From: Prevotella sp.
GTDB taxonomy: Bacteria > Bacteroidota > Bacteroidia > Bacteroidales > Bacteroidaceae
DNA length: 42,168 nucleotides
Direction: 5' to 3'
Assembly (NCBI GenBank): GCA_017467535.1
Contig: JAFUST010000004.1
Coordinates: 1-42,168, forward strand
Numbering within the stretch: position 1 is the first letter of the stretch; every line of letters starts with the position of its first letter. The notes under the pieces were generated by a model. It made no database searches. It saw only the letters and a list, made by a program, of their open reading frames with translations, and had not been told where the DNA came from. Made by a program: the position numbers and the translations under genes. Below, piece after piece: positions 22,268 through 38,294 of this stretch.

Positions 22268-22290
22268 AAAGTAAAAAAGGAAAAAGGAAA

Positions 22291-22331
22291 AACAGGGGTT
22301 CCTGACTTAGTCGAGGAACCCCTGTTTTTTT
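22291..22331. terminator. Bidirectional-capable intrinsic terminator overlapping the nitroreductase 3' end
   Basis: AACAGGGGTTCCT and AGGAACCCCTGTT form a perfect 13-bp stem with a 10-base loop, followed by T7 on the plus strand; A-rich sequence on the left can serve the minus strand. It ends the uronate operon. The loop and right arm encode the last residues and stop codon (QGFLD*) of the convergent nitroreductase. Confidence 0.9.
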
Positions 22332-27630: not shown

Positions 27631-27657
27631 GCCATACAGAACATTCATCCATGCAAA

Positions 27658-27698
27658 TCGCCGACCCATCACGGGCCGGCGACTTCTTTCATTCTTTT
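27658..27698 (+). terminator. Terminator of pta-ackA
   Basis: TCGCCGACCC-ATCAC-GGGCCGGCGA forms a 10-bp stem with one A/C mismatch, followed by the T-rich stretch CTTCTTTCATTCTTTTT. Confidence 0.75.
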
Positions 27699-27760
27699 TC
27701 GTTTCTGGCCCAGCCTACTCTCACGAGCCGGAAGGACCCAATGTGTCTTAATTAACAATT

Positions 27761-27790
27761 AAAAAAAGCATAACTTTTCTTGCGAAAAGT
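27761..27790 (-). terminator. Terminator of ncRNA copy 1
   Basis: On the minus strand ACTTTTC-GCAA-GAAAAGT forms a 7-bp stem (27773-27790), followed by TATGC and T7 (27761-27767). Confidence 0.75.
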
Positions 27791-28159
27791 CGGCGACAAA
27801 GCGAGGATTCGAACCTCGTATTGCCCACCGTCTGGGCTGCTTTGCGCTCAGGAAAAGGGCATACCGGCCTCCCCCATTACGGGAGAGCCAGATACCCCAA
27901 TTTCCTTTTGCATTTCCTCAAGGCCGCACCCTCGCAGGTACACCTTGACTGTAAATGAAGAGGGATTAATCAACCGCAGGGACATTCGTCCTCTGCGCAG
28001 ATGCCTCATCGCCACAACGTCCGATCATAGTTCAAAGTTGCGAAGTTTGAATACTCAGACAATTGTCGTTTAAGCACATCTCCGAGACCGACCGTACAAA
28101 TGGCCAAAAGTCTCGTTCCATCAAGTAAGATCACCTATTCACACATGAGCAGGCTTTTA
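27761..28159 (-). ncRNA. Structured non-coding RNA of ~400 nt, copy 1 (unrecognised family)
   Basis: No convincing ORF on either strand. The minus strand has a promoter (28166-28196) and ends in an intrinsic terminator (27761-27790), defining a ~399-nt transcript. Read 5' to 3' it has a hairpin GAGACttttGGCCA...CGGTCGGTCTC, then TGTCTGAGTATTCAAACTTC with a TTCAAA/TTTGAA hairpin, then CTATGA-x-CGG, GGTTGAT and AAGGTGTACC. All of these recur in the same order at 37830-38257. The 3' part has a long GC-rich hairpin around GGCTCTCCC/GGGGGAGGCC and a three-way junction with a T-arm-like hairpin CGAGG-TTCGAAT-CCTCG. I cannot fit it to tmRNA, RNase P RNA or SRP RNA. Exact ends are estimates. Confidence 0.6.
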
Positions 28160-28165
28160 CGCTTG

Positions 28166-28196
28166 CAAAGATAAGAAAAATTTCCGAGATACCCAA
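28166..28196 (-). promoter_or_regulatory. Promoter of ncRNA copy 1
   Basis: Minus strand: TTGG (28193-28196), 19 bases, TATCTTTG (28166-28173). Predicted start near 28159. Confidence 0.65.
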
Positions 28197-28379: not shown

Positions 28380-28694
28380 ATGAGAAGACCAGAAATTGTG
28401 GACAAGATAAGGCAAGCCATACAGGATTCAGCACCAACAGCCACAACAATTCTTTATGGTTCTGAGGCGCGTGGAGACGCTCGCCCAGACAGCGACATTG
28501 ATTTACTGGTTCTGCTCGAAGGTGACACTCGCAATCTCAAACAGGAGGATGATGTCTCTGGGGCTCTCTATGCTCTCGAACTTTCTACGGGTGTACTCAT
28601 TAGCCCGATGATTATGTTGCGTAAGCAATGGGAGAATCGTCCCTTTATGACTCCCTTCTATATAAACGTAATGAAGGAAGGAATCAAACTATGA
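28380..28694 (+). CDS. MNT-type nucleotidyltransferase, antitoxin of an MNT-HEPN pair
   Basis: A 104-residue minimal nucleotidyltransferase. The catalytic signature is GSEARGDARPDSDIDLLV: G27-S28-x10-D39-x-D41, with the ARGD helix cap typical of MNT proteins. No additional domains. In characterised MNT-HEPN systems (such as HepT/MntA) the MNT protein AMPylates and silences the HEPN RNase; that role is taken from the family. Its TGA overlaps the ATG of the HEPN gene (ATGA), the standard arrangement. Codon use is more AT-rich than in the flanking metabolic genes, consistent with acquisition. Confidence 0.88.
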   Translation: MRRPEIVDKIRQAIQDSAPTATTILYGSEARGDARPDSDIDLLVLLEGDTRNLKQEDDVSGALYALELSTGVLISPMIMLRKQWENRPFMTPFYINVMKEGIKL

Positions 28695-29089
28695 GTGAAA
28701 CATTAGACGAACAGGCTCGCCAAGACTTGGTAATCTATCGATTGAGTCGAGCAGACGAGGCATTGCAGGAGGCAGATTTGATGGCAAGTGAGGCCCATTT
28801 CAATGCTGCCATTAATCGACTGTATTATGCATGTTTCTATGCTGCGAGTGCATTGCTTGTCAGAAATGGCATCAGCGCAGTGAGTCATGCTGGAGTAAAA
28901 ACCATGTTAGGCCTGCATTTTGTCTCCAAAGGCATTCTCTCCTTCGAGCAGGGCAAACTCTTCAGCCGTCTGTTTGAGATTCGTCATAGTGGGGACTATG
29001 ATGATTTTGTCTATTGTGACAAGGAACTATTTGATGAATACTCCCCCAAAGCACGAAGTTTTATTGAGGCTATTAAGGCGCTAATATAG
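28691..29089 (+). CDS. HEPN domain protein, probable RNase toxin
   Basis: A 132-residue all-helical HEPN protein, partner of the MNT gene. Core: FNAAINRLYYACFYAASALLVRNGI (helix with the N-R-x-Y-Y-A-x-F-Y-A motif of this HEPN subgroup), AGVKTMLGLHFVSKG, and RLFEIRHSGDYDDFVYCDKEL, where the R-H-S-G-D-Y stretch holds the probable catalytic Arg/His. HEPN toxins of this kind cleave RNA; the specific target is unknown. The ATG at 28691 overlaps the MNT stop; a longer frame from 28628 would overlap most of the antitoxin end and has no support. A weak AT-rich hairpin follows near 29110-29126. Confidence 0.87.
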   Translation: MSETLDEQARQDLVIYRLSRADEALQEADLMASEAHFNAAINRLYYACFYAASALLVRNGISAVSHAGVKTMLGLHFVSKGILSFEQGKLFSRLFEIRHSGDYDDFVYCDKELFDEYSPKARSFIEAIKALI

Positions 29090-30880: not shown

Positions 30881-32398
30881 TCACACACCATGATTAATGC
30901 TCGCATATTTTTTGATTATATTGTGCAAGACGAAATTCTGATGCTTGTTCATTTCGCATACATGACCCTCACGTTCTCGAAATTTGAAATTAAACCCTCC
31001 CTTCTCATTCTTATTGCCTATAAGGGAATAGTCGAATAACATTTCCGCTATACCAACAGGATTATAGAACTCTGCATCCTGAAGTTCCTTTATCAATTCA
31101 TCGTAGGAGAATGTCTCACGCTGTCCTCCGTGGCCATAAAGAATCTTAAGAACATCGTCAATTTCCCTGTCACTCAGTTGCGATGATAGTTCGTTTCTTA
31201 TTTCTCCTATCATCTCCTTGGAATACCGTGCAATCAGACGGATTATTTCCTTATGACTAATCGGAAGAGGAATATCCTTACTCCCTATATCATTAAACAA
31301 GAGTACCAGGTCACGTGGTCTATAGAATGTCTGATCAAGTATGTATTTAAAACTAGATTTATGTTCACCCCGTTTAGCCTTTTCCACGAACTCACTCCAC
31401 GGATCAGCCATATCATATTCTATAGACAGGCGCTTGAAGTTGTGCTCTATACGCTTATTGATAAATTGTTTCAACAGTAATTTATCCTCAGAAATGTTTT
31501 CCTGATACCATCTTAGTGTAAAGGCATAACTATCAATCATCTTTGCTGTATCAGCATAGTTCATGATATGCCTGGAAATATCATCGCGAAGCAAAACAAT
31601 AATTCTTGTTGACAGATTATTCCGAGCAAAGACTTCGTTATTATAGTATTTCACCACTCGAAGTAAATCTACAAGCATGTCGTTATTTTCTTTTTTATTC
31701 TTATAGCCGATATCCAGATCATCAATTACCAGAAGATAGTCATTTCCTTCATCTTTATTCATGAGTTGCACCATCGTTTGCTCTAAGTCCGGCAGCATCT
31801 TATAGTATATTGCCTTGCTGCCCTTTTCTTTCACGTCTATGCCAAGTCTAGCGCAGAGTCGCTTCAAGTATTCTATGTTAACACTAAAGCCTTTAGCGGT
31901 CTCATGGTCATAGATTTCATATTTATCTATACCAACAAAACCACGGTTTCGATTGAGGAATTTATTAAGGGTTTTCATTTCATCCCAATGTTGGATATGC
32001 TCATTTTCCGTCATCAGATTAAGAATCTGAGTGAGTACCACCCATTTGAACAATGCACTATGATTTTCAACAGAGTGCTCCTGATAAGAGTTTTGTATAA
32101 GTTTCTCCAGTTCAATTTTGTGATGGCTAACCATTGCTGCGAACTGATTCGGCTGGTCATTTGTTATTGAAATAAGGTATTCGCCAACTGCAGACTTGCC
32201 CATGCCTTTTCGGCCAAGAATGATGAACTTGCCATTGTTAAGATGCCATATTAAATCAGGATAGTCAACGAATACATCATTCAGAAGAATATTCTTATTG
32301 TGAACCTCACCTTCTGCTTCAACAACTCCGATGATAAAACCACGTGTAGTTTTCACTGAAGAGTCATATGCTTTTAAAATGTGACTGAATAAGCCCAT
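30881..32398 (-). CDS. P-loop ATPase, Sll1717-like family
   Basis: A 505-residue AAA/STAND-like ATPase. Walker A is GRKGMGKS (62-69); Walker B is YLLVIDDLD (221-229) with the second acidic residue in place. A probable sensor Arg lies in TRIIVLLRDDISRHIM. The helical C-terminal half (FYRPRDLVLLFNDIG, then a winged-helix-like EIDDVLKILYGHGGQRETFSYDELIKELQDAEFYNPVGIAEMLFDYSLIG) fits proteins named after Sll1717. No membrane segment or nuclease motif. Expression and codon use are AT-rich relative to the core genes. The membrane-protein gene lies upstream in the same direction, 365 bases away; a promoter lies in that gap. Some Sll1717-like ATPases are found in defence-type neighbourhoods; here function is unknown. 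Confidence 0.68.
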   Translation of the reverse strand: MGLFSHILKAYDSSVKTTRGFIIGVVEAEGEVHNKNILLNDVFVDYPDLIWHLNNGKFIILGRKGMGKSAVGEYLISITNDQPNQFAAMVSHHKIELEKLIQNSYQEHSVENHSALFKWVVLTQILNLMTENEHIQHWDEMKTLNKFLNRNRGFVGIDKYEIYDHETAKGFSVNIEYLKRLCARLGIDVKEKGSKAIYYKMLPDLEQTMVQLMNKDEGNDYLLVIDDLDIGYKNKKENNDMLVDLLRVVKYYNNEVFARNNLSTRIIVLLRDDISRHIMNYADTAKMIDSYAFTLRWYQENISEDKLLLKQFINKRIEHNFKRLSIEYDMADPWSEFVEKAKRGEHKSSFKYILDQTFYRPRDLVLLFNDIGSKDIPLPISHKEIIRLIARYSKEMIGEIRNELSSQLSDREIDDVLKILYGHGGQRETFSYDELIKELQDAEFYNPVGIAEMLFDYSLIGNKNEKGGFNFKFREREGHVCEMNKHQNFVLHNIIKKYASINHGV

Positions 32399-34576: not shown

Positions 34577-37567
34577 TTACTTAATGATAACCTTCTTACC
34601 ATTATTGATGTAGACACCCTTCTCAGTAGGTACGCCTTGCAGTTTGACACCATTCAAGTTATACCAGCCTTCAGCAGGTACTGCCACACCCTCAGCATTG
34701 ATGTTTCTGATAACGGTAGTGCTACCGTCAGCCTCCTCAATAAGGATGATGGGAGCCTCAGCGTTTGCTGCAAACTCGTCGCTAAGAACAAGAATAGCAG
34801 AGGTCGCACGATAAGTGAACGAAGCAGCCTCACCGTTATTAGTAGCAGCCCCGATGGTTGGCTTACCAGCCTTATCAGCATATCCATAGAGCACGTTGCT
34901 GCCGCCGGCATTCTCCGTGCCATCTACATAAGTACCGATGAAGTGAACCTTATCAATACCCTTATATATAGGAACACCATTTTCAAGGTTGACATCCTCA
35001 ATCTTCTGACTATTAAATGTGAGGTAGGTATCTGGCGTACCTGCTGTTGTGTAGTTAACATCCTCTACGGGCTTCACCAAGAACGGTGTATTGGCAGGAA
35101 TTTCGTTAATATTGAGGCTGAAACTTACGGTATTCTTCTCAACATTAGCAGACTTCAGCGTGTTGAACACGGCATACTTATTGCCAATAGCGGTGATGAA
35201 CTCCATCGGGGTGACAGAGAACGGCAGAACCATGATGTTCCAAGAGCCACCAATCAACTTACGGGTAGTCTTGAGCACGACATTGTACTTTGTATCAGTA
35301 TTAGCCTTGGTGGCAGCAATAGCATCGGCGATTCTTGTCACAGAGGCAGCAGCACCGTCGATTACAAGTTCAGGATTGGTGAGATCGACCTTAGTCAATT
35401 TACCACCTTCCTCATCAATTACGACTTTGTAGTGAGCAGTGTTTGCATCTTCTGCGTCCAACTCAATGGTGATTGCATTTGTCTGAGCACTATAACCGTC
35501 TTCGAAATGGATTGTGGTCTGTGCACCAGTCTCGGCATTAGTATTCACGGTCAGATTAGTGACACTGTTGAATTTGTAAGTGAACTTAAGTTCTTCATCG
35601 TATGCTGTCGTATACTCGCTAACAGTACCCTTGGTCTGCAGGATCTCCCATGTAGCACCTTCCCACAGTTCAACGTCGCCGACCTTGATGTTCAGCGTCT
35701 TCTTAGTGATGTTGAAGTCCTGCTCCTGAGATTCAAACTCGCCGTCCTGATAGTTGCCAGTACCTGCGAGGCCTTCCTTCACCTTCACGGTATAAGAACC
35801 GATTGCCGTAGGAGCGGTTGTAGTATAAGTGTCATCAGCGGCGCCCAATACTTTATATTCATAGACAGCAGTACCTGTTACGGTAGCAGTAGCATAGGTG
35901 CTTGCGTCGAAGGCCAGATAACTTGGCGTAATGGCGGTGCCATATTCTACGCTTGCGATAGAAGGCATGATGACAAATTTTGCACCATTAACAGTCAGAG
36001 TAGCAGGAGTCAGGGTAGGCGTGTTGTAGTTAGCCAATTTAGGAGTCTCACCATCAGTCTTCTTTGGAATGAAGGCATTCTCATAAGTACCCTGTGCAGG
36101 CTTGGTCTCAGTGGTCCAACTTGAATATGCGCTTACGCCAGTATTGATAGCAGCCGAGTAGTAACCCTTGATGGTGGCAGTCTCGCTAGAGATAGCACCA
36201 GTAACCGAAATCTCAGAAGTAACAGTGCTAAGAGCAGCACCGTAGGTAATCGGATTAACAGTAGCAGTAATCGTGAGGTCGGCCTTCTCAATCTCCCATG
36301 TTGCCTCCGGTGTCACGGTGGTATACAGGTCGGTCAGTTTATACTCAGTACCGTTCTTGGTGATTTTAACATCATCGCCTACCTTTGCCTCCACCTTATA
36401 CTCCTTAGCATCGGCAGCAAGTTCAGGACCGGAAGTGGTCTTTTGTGCAGTCAGACCAGTAATCGTCAGACCACGGTCGCCAGCAGCCAACTGACCAGGG
36501 ATGATAACAGCATCACCAAGATCGAAGGCTGTACCGTCGTACTTCTTAGACTTGCCCTGCACGATAATAGCCAACGGGGTAGTGCTCTTCACAATCTTGA
36601 AGGTACCCAACTTGTTCTTGGAGTCATCTGAGTTTACAGTATAGTTGGTGTTTGAAATGGTCTTAACGAAAGCGTTGAAGTCCTCGTTCACAATCCAGGG
36701 CTGTACTTCGGTAGTTACATCACCATCCTGATACTTCACAGTGAAGGCAGAACTCTGCAGGGTCTCTTTGTCATTCTCGCCTTCACCATAAGTGTAGGTG
36801 ATGGTATAAGTAGGAGCCTGCACATTGCCAGTATAGGTAAAGCCCGTCGTAGCATTGTAGGACTCACCTGCATCTGCAGCAAACTCAGAACCAGTCAGGT
36901 CAATAACAGCCTGCTTGATCTTCACGTAGTTCTTCAAGTAAGAGATGTTGTAGTTCTTGTCGGCACCGGCTTTAGCCGTGACACCAGTCACAGTAACCTC
37001 ATAACCATTGTTACCAGTAGTGAGAGCAGCACTGCCGTCACCCTTCCAGTTAGCATTTGTGCCAGTGTAACTCCACTTGGCACCTTCTGCTACTGTGAAG
37101 AGATCAGCAACATTCTCACTGTTCTTCTGGCCAGAAATGGTAATCTTGCCGGCAGCAACAGCCTTGTCAATAGCCTCCTTCTTGTAGACGGCAGTGAAGT
37201 CGCTATACGAAGATCCTGTCAGCGTCCAAGTCAGGTTAGCCTTCTTAACTTCGAATGGTTCGGTGATTGAGCCAGTAAATCCGGCTTTACCAATCACTTT
37301 TACAGTGTAATTGCCTGCGTCGAGTTTGGTAGTACCTGCTGTGACTGTCTTCTTCACATTTTCACTGTCATAATACTCAACGTCGTAGTTCGTAGCGGCT
37401 ACTGCGTCGCCCGTCGATACATTTTTTACGACAGGAGCCTTGACAGCATCACCATAGGTGACGTCATCAATACTGACGAGCCACAGGCTTGACACATCAG
37501 CATCATCTGCCCATCCTGCTAACGGCAAGAGGCTCAACAGCATCAAAATAAGAAAATTTTTTCTCAT
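34577..37567 (-). CDS. Surface protein with MBG-like repeats and T9SS-like tail
   Basis: A 996-residue secreted protein. Signal peptide MRKNFLILMLLSLLPLAGWA-DDADV. The body is a string of MBG-type Ig-like repeats, recognisable by openings such as DDVTYGDAVKAP, NPITYGAALSTV, ASVEYGTAITPSY and endings such as AGNYTVKVIGKAGFTG and IGSYTVKVKEGLAGTGNY, interspersed with 'KKANLTW' / 'EKADLTI' linkers. A distinct C-terminal module (~750-950) includes IMVLPFSVTPMEF and FIGTYVDGTENAGGSNVLYGYADKAGKP. It ends GWYNLNGVKLQGVPTEKGVYINNGKKVIIK, nearly the same tail as the giant adhesin. Domain boundaries are approximate. No standard TAnnTTTG promoter is seen in the 250 bases upstream; an AT-rich leader with repeated TTAACAATTTA precedes the ATG. 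Confidence 0.8.
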   Translation of the reverse strand: MRKNFLILMLLSLLPLAGWADDADVSSLWLVSIDDVTYGDAVKAPVVKNVSTGDAVAATNYDVEYYDSENVKKTVTAGTTKLDAGNYTVKVIGKAGFTGSITEPFEVKKANLTWTLTGSSYSDFTAVYKKEAIDKAVAAGKITISGQKNSENVADLFTVAEGAKWSYTGTNANWKGDGSAALTTGNNGYEVTVTGVTAKAGADKNYNISYLKNYVKIKQAVIDLTGSEFAADAGESYNATTGFTYTGNVQAPTYTITYTYGEGENDKETLQSSAFTVKYQDGDVTTEVQPWIVNEDFNAFVKTISNTNYTVNSDDSKNKLGTFKIVKSTTPLAIIVQGKSKKYDGTAFDLGDAVIIPGQLAAGDRGLTITGLTAQKTTSGPELAADAKEYKVEAKVGDDVKITKNGTEYKLTDLYTTVTPEATWEIEKADLTITATVNPITYGAALSTVTSEISVTGAISSETATIKGYYSAAINTGVSAYSSWTTETKPAQGTYENAFIPKKTDGETPKLANYNTPTLTPATLTVNGAKFVIMPSIASVEYGTAITPSYLAFDASTYATATVTGTAVYEYKVLGAADDTYTTTAPTAIGSYTVKVKEGLAGTGNYQDGEFESQEQDFNITKKTLNIKVGDVELWEGATWEILQTKGTVSEYTTAYDEELKFTYKFNSVTNLTVNTNAETGAQTTIHFEDGYSAQTNAITIELDAEDANTAHYKVVIDEEGGKLTKVDLTNPELVIDGAAASVTRIADAIAATKANTDTKYNVVLKTTRKLIGGSWNIMVLPFSVTPMEFITAIGNKYAVFNTLKSANVEKNTVSFSLNINEIPANTPFLVKPVEDVNYTTAGTPDTYLTFNSQKIEDVNLENGVPIYKGIDKVHFIGTYVDGTENAGGSNVLYGYADKAGKPTIGAATNNGEAASFTYRATSAILVLSDEFAANAEAPIILIEEADGSTTVIRNINAEGVAVPAEGWYNLNGVKLQGVPTEKGVYINNGKKVIIK

Positions 37568-37815: not shown

Positions 37816-37829
37816 TAAAATATGGAAAC

Positions 37830-37988
37830 AAAAAAAGACGTGGGAGTAAGTCTCTCCGCGCCTATCCTAGTATTCAGGCCTTCGCATTGCCCCTATGAAA
37901 GGATAAGCAACATGAAAGCCTGCCCACGTCAGGTGATATATACATATACACATTACCACCTGACACAATCCCCTCTGCCTCCAGACGA
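37830..37988 (-). ncRNA. Possible independent ~160-nt RNA nested in the 3' half of copy 2
   Basis: Starting after TATCTTTG (37995-38002, minus strand), the transcript would fold into GTCAGGTG/CACCTGAC and then a closing stem GACGTGGG...CCCACGTC spanning ~90 nt with inner pairings (TATCC/GGATA), ending in T7. A long closed rod with internal loops that ends in its own terminator recalls 6S-type RNAs in outline only. I do not see diagnostic sequence, so the identity is open. Confidence 0.4.
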
Positions 37989-37994
37989 TATACG

Positions 37995-38002
37995 CAAAGA
38001 TA
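37995..38002 (-). promoter_or_regulatory. Internal -7 box in ncRNA copy 2
   Basis: CAAAGATA on the plus strand is TATCTTTG on the minus strand. No TTTG at the right distance, so this is a weaker promoter call than the one at 38264. Confidence 0.45.
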
Positions 38003-38263
38003 GTACGCCACCTCTCGGAGGGGTACACCTTATTATATATATAAGGGAAATATCAGGCGTAGGATGATACAAGATCAACCCAAACGTAGACGTCTCAGTT
38101 GCATTACCGCCGTTCATAGATTCAAGTTTGCGAAGTTTGAATACTCAGACAGGTAACGTCAAGAAAACGTCCTTTCGAGACTGGCCGCACAACTGGCCTG
38201 AGGTCTCGTTCCACAAAAAACCTTTTTGTCGCCCACCCACGCAAGGGCAGGCCATTTCGGGTG

Positions 38264-38294
38264 CAAAGATAAACATTAATTCTGAAACAGCAAA
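38264..38294 (-). promoter_or_regulatory. Promoter of ncRNA copy 2
   Basis: Minus strand: TTTG (38291-38294), 19 bases, TATCTTTG (38264-38271): perfect consensus. Confidence 0.75.

What the first reader, a model, noticed from the sequence alone, without database searches (positions are those of the whole stretch)
27761..28159. Two homologous ~400-nt structured RNAs with no protein-coding content
The minus strands of 27761-28159 and 37830-38257 share, in the same order, a GAGAC...GTCTC hairpin with inner GGCC pairing, TGTCTGAGTATTCAAACTTC, CTATGA-x-CGG, GGTTGAT and AAGGTGTACC. Between these blocks the sequences differ. The TTCAAA/TTTGAA stem appears as ATTCAA/TTGAAT in the other copy, a compensatory change. 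Both have a TAnnTTTG promoter and end in stem plus T7. I cannot match either to tmRNA, RNase P RNA or SRP RNA.
Basis: partly seen in the sequence, partly recalled or inferred. Interest (0 to 1): 0.75.

Follow-up and report, generated by a model that had tools for sequence, protein, structure and literature searches.

The report
Barcoded structured RNAs before exported-protein genes
The two stretches belong to an apparently undescribed family of large folded RNAs in Prevotella-like bacteria, which usually sit just before genes for exported proteins and carry a short pairing code that differs from copy to copy, so they may act as gene-specific on/off switches.

Summary
The observation largely holds and is bigger than reported. 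Both stretches carry the 5' domain of a structured RNA with no Rfam 15 match. The copy at 37830-38262 (c2) is the canonical form: promoter, 5' domain, 3' domain, U-run, then a gene for a secreted repetitive protein. The copy named in the finding (c1) shares only the 5' ~250 nt; its 3' end is a tRNA-like module plus terminator. Covariance models find the 5' domain in 127 of 398 same-genus genomes and the 3' domain in 55 of 393 genomes of the order; in 296 genomes sampled across the phylum only the window's own matched. Three 7-nt segments (A, B, C) in the 5' domain pair with C', B', A' in the 3' domain. A and C differ widely between copies, even between same-genome paralogues ~93% identical elsewhere, yet mostly stay complementary. 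The terminator arm with its U-run can instead pair with an upstream element that has a second partner. Best reading: a transcription attenuator, mostly of exported-protein genes, with a copy-specific internal lock. Switching and the purpose of the code are inferred. c1 keeps c2's code without the answering strands and might act on c2 in trans.

The parts
38264..38271 (-). Bacteroidales -7 promoter element TATCTTTG of c2
   Evidence: sequence; 97 of 101 family members have TAnnTTTG upstream, 66 of them in the two commonest offset bins, against 9% of mononucleotide shuffles
38097..38253 (-). c2, 5' domain (model R1 match)
   Evidence: 176.1 bits; c2 is one of the six sequences the model was built from; covariation
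38167..38175 (-). c2 element X5 (AAAGGACGT), with two mutually exclusive partners
   Evidence: covaries with X3 and with Y
38139..38145 (-). c2 code segment A (AGTATTC)
   Evidence: pairs with A'; over 104 loci own pairing 6.23 of 7 against 3.26 for mismatched loci, 0 of 1000 permutations
38129..38135 (-). c2 code segment B (CTTCGCA), apical loop
   Evidence: own 6.89 against 5.49
38113..38119 (-). c2 code segment C (CTATGAA)
   Evidence: own 6.42 against 3.02
38088..38096 (-). c2 element Y (GAGACGTCT), one partner of X5
37837..37930 (-). c2, 3' domain (model R3 match 37833-37929), closed by GACGTGGG/CCCACGTC
   Evidence: 101.6 bits; c2 is one of the 60 sequences of the model
37893..37899 (-). 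C' (TTCATAG)
37880..37886 (-). B' (TGCGAAG)
37869..37875 (-). A' (GAATACT)
37830..37841 (-). end of the terminator-like 3' arm and U-run; ACGTCTTTT (37833-37841) is X3, alternative partner of X5
   Evidence: arm plus U>=4 in 99 of 101 loci
37822..37829 (-). GTTTCCAT after the U-run, conserved; partner unknown
   Evidence: TTTCC within 12 nt after the U-run in 80 of 100 loci; a pairing with the 5' domain was tested and not supported
34577..37567 (-). 996-aa secreted repetitive protein, first gene after c2
   Evidence: no Pfam match above cut-off. Likeness by eye to the products after L012 and L013, of which L012's matches MBG_2 (2e-8) and L013's does so below cut-off
28166..28173 (-). promoter element TATCTTTG of c1
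   Evidence: sequence
28007..28155 (-). c1, 5' domain (model R1 match)
   Evidence: 128.8 bits, also a model member; orthologue beside ackA in G416
28049..28055 (-). c1 segment A, identical to c2's
28039..28045 (-). c1 segment B, identical to c2's
28024..28030 (-). c1 segment C (CTATGAT), 6 of 7 as in c2
27761..27850 (-). c1 3' end: tRNA-like module (acceptor-like stem, GACGG hairpin, T-arm GAGGTTCGAATCCTC) plus terminator hairpin and T7 (27761-27767)
   Evidence: 98.1 bits with R2 (the model was built from this and two other copies)

Best explanation
A family of ~400-430-nt leader RNAs, found only in Bacteroidales in our samples, each with its own promoter and sitting just before a gene or operon that usually encodes an exported protein. 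Shown from sequence: (i) a covarying 5' domain; (ii) a compact 3' domain closed by a terminator-like stem and U-run; (iii) three segments A, B, C of the 5' domain complementary to C', B', A' of the 3' domain, with A and C hypervariable between copies; (iv) the terminator arm plus U-run (X3) complementary to X5, a 5'-domain element that also pairs with Y. Inferred: X5 pairing with Y leaves the terminator free to form, giving a short RNA; X5 pairing with X3 disarms it and lets transcription into the gene. The A-B-C lock holds the two domains together in one of the states, and its copy-specific letters keep the several copies in a cell from cross-pairing. c1, with c2's code but no answering strands, would be a second RNA able to compete in trans for c2's 3' domain.
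For: 5' domain: 90.2% of cells paired, covariation score 0.324 against 0.148 shuffled, 0 of 500. Code: own A 6.23 and C 6.42 of 7 against 3.26 and 3.02, 104 loci, 0 of 1000 permutations. Paralogues: 54 of 77 same-genome pairs with flank identity >=0.85 (mean 0.928) have A+C identity 0.472. L187 and L203, from other families, keep the pairing with other letters. X5/X3: 54 GACGT/ACGTC and 32 GGCGT/ATGCC of 97 loci; X5/Y also covaries, 99 loci; 0 of 1000 permutations each. Promoter in 97 of 101, arm plus U-run in 99 of 101, a GGGAG-like motif within 140 nt after the U-run in 84 of 98 against 11% of shuffles. First downstream ORFs look exported in 75 of 94 against 4 of 22 control ORFs. c1 matches c2's 3' domain at 20 of 21 positions, against 12-15 for six other 3' domains of the genome.
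Against: No expression data; no ligand, protein or signal is known, and downstream genes are diverse. X5/X3 falls almost wholly into two types, so it may rest on few events inherited by many loci, and the gain over permuted partners is small (8.56 against 8.37 of 9; X5/Y 8.71 against 8.30); 11 of 97 loci fit neither type, some because of my fixed register. The terminator stem is stronger than either duplex of X5 (-13.8 against -8.6 for X5/X3 and -9.4 for X5/Y). X5/X3 could be a permanent closing helix. A further helix that I had assumed, between the 5' domain and UUUCC after the U-run, got no support (493 of 1000 permutations). Code pairing is weak in some loci: A<=4 in 12, C<=4 in 11 of 104; L044, L047, L077, L118 and L194 look really mismatched. 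Permutations ignore relatedness. The c1 orthologue matches its own c2 less well (18 of 21, another copy 17), and c1 is conserved no better than ackA.
Confidence: 0.5

Rival explanations
1. A stand-alone regulatory or scaffold RNA (like OLE or ROOL) that ends at the U-run; the genes behind it have their own expression signals.
For: Own promoter and terminator-like end; a large, intricate, pseudoknotted fold.
Against: Conserved TTTCC just past the U-run (80 of 100) and a GGGAG-like motif shortly after (84 of 98), with exported-protein genes mostly following, point to a leader.
Confidence: 0.27
2. The code is a guide: A/B/C or C'/B'/A' recognise DNA or another RNA (bridge-RNA or EBS/IBS style), and the units are mobile.
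For: Hypervariable short segments in loops of otherwise constant RNAs, several copies per genome; unrelated genes behind them. In five units tested because their ORF looked alike, a PDDEXK_2 gene ('PD-(D/E)XK nuclease family transposase') stands behind the tRNA-like module, on the other strand. This was found on re-checking; I raised this rival from 0.10 to 0.14.
Against: The segments are complementary to each other inside one RNA, which would mask a guide. The PDDEXK_2 genes lie beyond the T-module, were not searched for systematically, and were not seen among the 25 of 56 families shown for first genes. No match to c2 in phages or plasmids, none of the motif in viral contigs.
Confidence: 0.14
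3. Plain compensatory drift in tolerant helices; the code has no meaning beyond holding the fold.
For: A and C changes are mostly compensated; B varies little.
Against: Paralogues ~93% identical elsewhere are ~47% identical in A+C, while some codes recur in other genomes (L064/L072, L052/L071).
Confidence: 0.25
4. c1 is only a deletion remnant: a 5' domain fused to a T-module.
For: Truncated or replaced 3' ends occur elsewhere (L088, L090, L110); c1's make-up was seen in two genomes only; its conservation (91.9%) is like that of ackA (92.8%).
Against: c1 keeps promoter, helices and c2's code, its orthologue in G416 stands at the same place, and it is better conserved than the 150 nt upstream (86.2% of only 109 alignable positions).
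Confidence: 0.5

Closest known systems
Transcription attenuators and riboswitch expression platforms (5' leaders with terminator/antiterminator; recalled)
   Same: Own promoter, long leader, terminator-like stem and U-run, an element with two exclusive partners, gene downstream
   Different: No Rfam match; three-segment hypervariable internal lock; heterogeneous genes; several paralogues per genome. No ligand known
Antisense pairs of plasmid copy-number control (RNAI/RNAII type; recalled)
   Same: Short loop sequences that diverge so that related copies stay independent
   Different: Here both strands lie in one RNA; only c1 resembles a trans partner
IS110 bridge RNA and group II intron EBS/IBS (recalled)
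   Same: Short variable segments in loops of a constant scaffold
   Different: Segments pair with each other in cis; no such recombinase or reverse transcriptase seen next to the RNA
OLE, ROOL, GOLLD large bacterial RNAs (recalled)
   Same: Size and intricacy
   Different: No Rfam hit over the RNA; position before exported-protein genes
tmRNA tRNA-like domain; MALAT1/mascRNA (recalled) - for the T-module only
   Same: Acceptor-like stem, GACGG hairpin, canonical T-loop, at an RNA 3' end
   Different: No CCA in c1; not called by ARAGORN; several copies lie just behind genes
HMP2_1881, 108-bp candidate RNA near radical SAM genes in Bacteroidetes, found 13 times and expressed each time (Fremin and Bhatt 2021, PMC8040213; passages seen)
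   Same: Length near our ~95-nt 3' domain; 6 of our 94 downstream ORFs match Radical_SAM

Membership tests
Any Rfam 15 family | Match at or above the gathering score | tested here: not met
   Window at E<=5: none in these stretches. Eight of the fetched loci at E<=0.5: three matches, all far below their gathering scores (L203 2401-2638 on both strands, L046 1727-1832)
tmRNA / tRNA (for c1 3' end) | Called by ARAGORN, or a tmRNA match in Rfam | tested here: not met
   0 genes in the window and in L017-L019; no tmRNA among the window matches
Transcription attenuator | Terminator-like stem plus U-run before the gene | tested here: met
   99 of 101 loci by motif; stem pairing
Transcription attenuator | Alternative helix that excludes the terminator | tested here: inconclusive
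   X5/X3 and X5/Y complementarity with 0 of 1000 permutations each, but mainly two sequence types, and that both helices form is not shown
Transcription attenuator | Regulated read-through in cells | not testable with these tools
   No transcript data
Riboswitch | Ligand binding | not testable with these tools
   No candidate ligand; downstream genes are diverse
Bridge RNA / intron-encoded guide | Cognate recombinase or reverse transcriptase next to the RNA | tested here: inconclusive
   None among the 25 of 56 families shown for 94 first downstream ORFs; but PDDEXK_2 genes lie behind the T-module in five units looked at

The most novel reading that the evidence does not exclude
A coded self-recognition system made of RNA: each exported-protein gene carries a leader whose two halves recognise each other by a private code of about a dozen nucleotides, codes diversify between paralogues to stay orthogonal, and dedicated code-matched RNAs (c1, with a tRNA-like 3' end) switch single genes in trans, so that a cell can choose among its surface proteins one by one.
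Probability: 0.2. Interest if true: 0.93.

Novelty: new variant of a known kind. Interest (0 to 1): 0.78.

Why it matters
Large structured RNA families are rare finds, and this one occurs in about a third of the sampled genomes of the window's genus (127 of 398), mostly in front of genes for exported proteins. If it is a switch, it is a control layer for what these bacteria display and secrete. The copy-specific code inside a constant RNA is unlike any leader that I know of, and it poses a directly testable question: does the code insulate paralogues, or address them?

Tried and rejected
Exact-motif search in 60 genomes: 8 matched; the matches in the seven other than the window's own lie in sequence without the rest of the RNA. 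Two of five genome contigs pattern matches were real (L012, L013); L014-L016 were chance. No match to c2 in phages or plasmids, no motif in viral contigs. A link of the RNA with the MNT/HEPN pair next to c1 was dropped: the divergent neighbour of c2 is an FeS-assembly-type protein. The T-module as the fixed end of every unit was weakened: ten of the 15 stretches have a T-module by motif but neither RNA domain in the part fetched (the RNA could lie further off), and on C42 T-modules lie ~20 kb upstream of the RNA. A helix between the 5' domain and UUUCC after the U-run was tested and got no support. Pairing of the GGGAG-like motif with CUCCC was only seen by eye.

Literature: listings (three of them empty), and passages of PMC8040213. 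I found no description of this family in those searches; subscription papers, preprints and supplements were not searched.

Full report
WHAT WAS CHECKED. They fold better than shuffles and match no Rfam family. The window is a whole contig (C100) of a 2.39-Mb, 79% complete genome. G416 is in its genus, and G416:C75 has the length and genes of the record of L012, Prevotella sp. RGIG4836, so the genus is that of this Prevotella MAG.

THE FAMILY. A model of the 5' domain (R1; six sequences) matches 127 of 398 same-genus genomes at E<=0.01; about 4 would be expected by chance, and at most seven candidates were scored per genome, so copy counts are lower bounds. The window's genome has 13 matches at E<=10, the weakest E=0.003, several cut by contig ends. 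A model of the 3' domain (R3; 60 sequences) matches 55 of 393 genomes of the order, in 30 of 206 genera, at E<=1e-3. Of 296 genomes drawn across the phylum 1 matches, the window's own. Of the 19 order-wide loci fetched for R3, 10 were given to R1: 8 match, on the strand of the 3' domain and just upstream of it (L187, L188, L191, L198, L199, L202, L203, L204), 2 do not (L192, L193). A motif scan for both domains passed 106 of 123 loci, two of the 106 being repeats of another locus. The 17 others include contig-end truncations, c1, full-length copies that the motif missed (L107, L109, L136, L141), broken or replaced 3' ends (L088, L090, L110) and one with other genes between the domains (L135).

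STRUCTURE. On 75 sequences fitted to R1, 90.2% of cells pair, 35 of 35 pairs have two-sided changes and 0 of 500 shuffles reach any of the five measures; slid partners pair at 29-44%. The alignment was fitted to the model, which favours it.

THE CODE. The 5' domain holds A (one side of an internal loop), B (apical loop) and C (other side); the 3' domain holds C', B', A' in that order. In c2: AGTATTC/GAATACT, CTTCGCA/TGCGAAG, CTATGAA/TTCATAG. Over 104 loci (two of them near-duplicates, L065 and L101) the longest Watson-Crick run of A with its own 3' domain averages 6.23 of 7, with other loci's 3.26; C 6.42 against 3.02; B 6.89 against 5.49; 0 of 1000 permutations reach the observed sums. L203, from another family, pairs TGCCAATC with GATTGGCA. 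Of 19 order-wide loci put to a script 15 parsed; L186 parsed at a wrong place and L194 looks truly mismatched. Of 77 same-genome pairs, 54 have flank identity >=0.85 (mean 0.928, gaps ignored), yet their A+C identity averages 0.472, including near-constant edge letters. Codes can recur between genomes (L064 and L072; L052 and L071). A<=4 in 12 and C<=4 in 11 of 104, partly because of fixed-register extraction.

THE SWITCH. The 3' domain ends in a stem and U-run. The end of that arm plus four U (X3) can pair with X5: 54 loci GACGT/ACGTC, 32 GGCGT/ATGCC, 11 others of 97; 8.56 of 9 positions paired against 8.37 with permuted partners, 0 of 1000; the terminator stem itself gains less (7.57 against 7.51 of 8, 0 of 1000). 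X5 also pairs with Y (99 loci; longest run 8.71 against 8.30, G-U allowed, 0 of 1000). Because two types make up most of X5/X3, few events may lie behind it. A strand with two covarying, exclusive partners, one a terminator arm, is the anatomy of an attenuator; that it works so is inferred. Past the U-run TTTCC persists in 80 of 100 loci, but its supposed partner in the 5' domain shows no covariation (493 of 1000 permutations). A GGGAG-like motif follows within 140 nt in 84 of 98.

GENES. Of 103 downstream ORFs chosen by length, 94 were scanned; three repeats and six that I judged doubtful by eye were left out. By a crude test 75 of 94 look exported, against 4 of 22 ORFs upstream of the RNA, a small control with a different length rule. 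Pfam: 18 BspA-type LRR, 6 radical SAM, 3 MBG_2, 2 C10 peptidase, a long tail (25 of 56 families shown, ORFs cut at 500 aa). The protein behind c2 has no Pfam match above cut-off; L012's matches MBG_2.

c1 AND THE T-MODULE. c1 ends in a tRNA-like module with terminator, present elsewhere in the genome and in 11 of 396 same-genus genomes. In 17 RNA/T pairs on 16 contigs the T-module lies about 0.7-10 kb downstream on the same strand; on C42 it lies upstream, and T-modules also occur without the RNA nearby. Behind the T-module of five units tested (L018, L166, L169, L170, L171) a PDDEXK_2 gene stands on the other strand, in four of them only part of the profile is matched; this was not searched for systematically. 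G416 has a c1 orthologue beside ackA, with promoter, 5' domain and T-module but no 3' domain, and ~60 nt shorter. c1 is 91.9% identical to it, ackA 92.8%, c2 to its own orthologue 97.1%, the 150 nt upstream of c1 86.2% of 109 alignable positions. c1's A, B, C match c2's 3' domain at 20 of 21 positions and six others of the genome at 12-15; in G416 the c2 orthologue is again best (18) but another copy reaches 17. A trans role is possible, not shown.

VERDICT. A real, apparently undescribed structured RNA family (confidence ~0.97), probably leaders of mainly exported-protein genes (~0.7), perhaps attenuators (~0.5), with a copy-specific code whose purpose is open. On re-checking I changed one figure: the guide/mobile rival rose from 0.10 to 0.14 for the PDDEXK_2 genes.

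Noticed in passing
window 27761-27850 (-); L018, L019, L165-L177, L210-L222: tRNA-like module without anticodon arm, with a canonical T-loop and GACGG-type hairpin, followed by a terminator, often just behind the last gene of a unit. It could be an RNase P-type 3' processing site.
   Followed up: partly
L018 422-1340 (+), L166 38-463 (+), L169 4953-5570 (-), L170 644-1009 (+), L171 78-707 (+): PDDEXK_2 (PD-(D/E)XK nuclease family transposase) genes behind the T-module on the other strand, in all five of the loci that I tested because they looked alike.
   Followed up: partly
window 27640-27761 (-); L018 1340-1463, L019 60-200 and 1340-1469: A second conserved repeat after the T-module (GGCTCGTGAGAGTAGG and GTCGCCGGCCCGTGATGGGTCGGCG hairpins), once also without a T-module.
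   Followed up: no
L166-L168 and L051, before the T-module: Small peptides of the form ..PEMEV....ILAGS.. or similar encoded between the large gene and the T-module.
   Followed up: no
L077/L076 (G107), L047, L118, L044, L194: Copies whose 5' and 3' codes do not match; L077's 3' domain is identical to L076's, suggesting recombination between copies.
   Followed up: partly
L135, ~560-2080: A stretch of about 1.5 kb with two ORFs that look (recalled) like an AbiEi/AbiEii toxin-antitoxin pair, on the other strand, lies between a 5' domain and a diverged 3' domain.
   Followed up: no
window 28380-29089 (+) and 30881-32398 (-): Nucleotidyltransferase plus HEPN pair and an Sll1717-family P-loop ATPase, defence or toxin-antitoxin type genes between c1 and c2.
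   Followed up: no
window 22287-22330: Near-perfect inverted repeat flanked by A and T runs, a likely bidirectional terminator; it gave a spurious Rfam miRNA hit.
   Followed up: no
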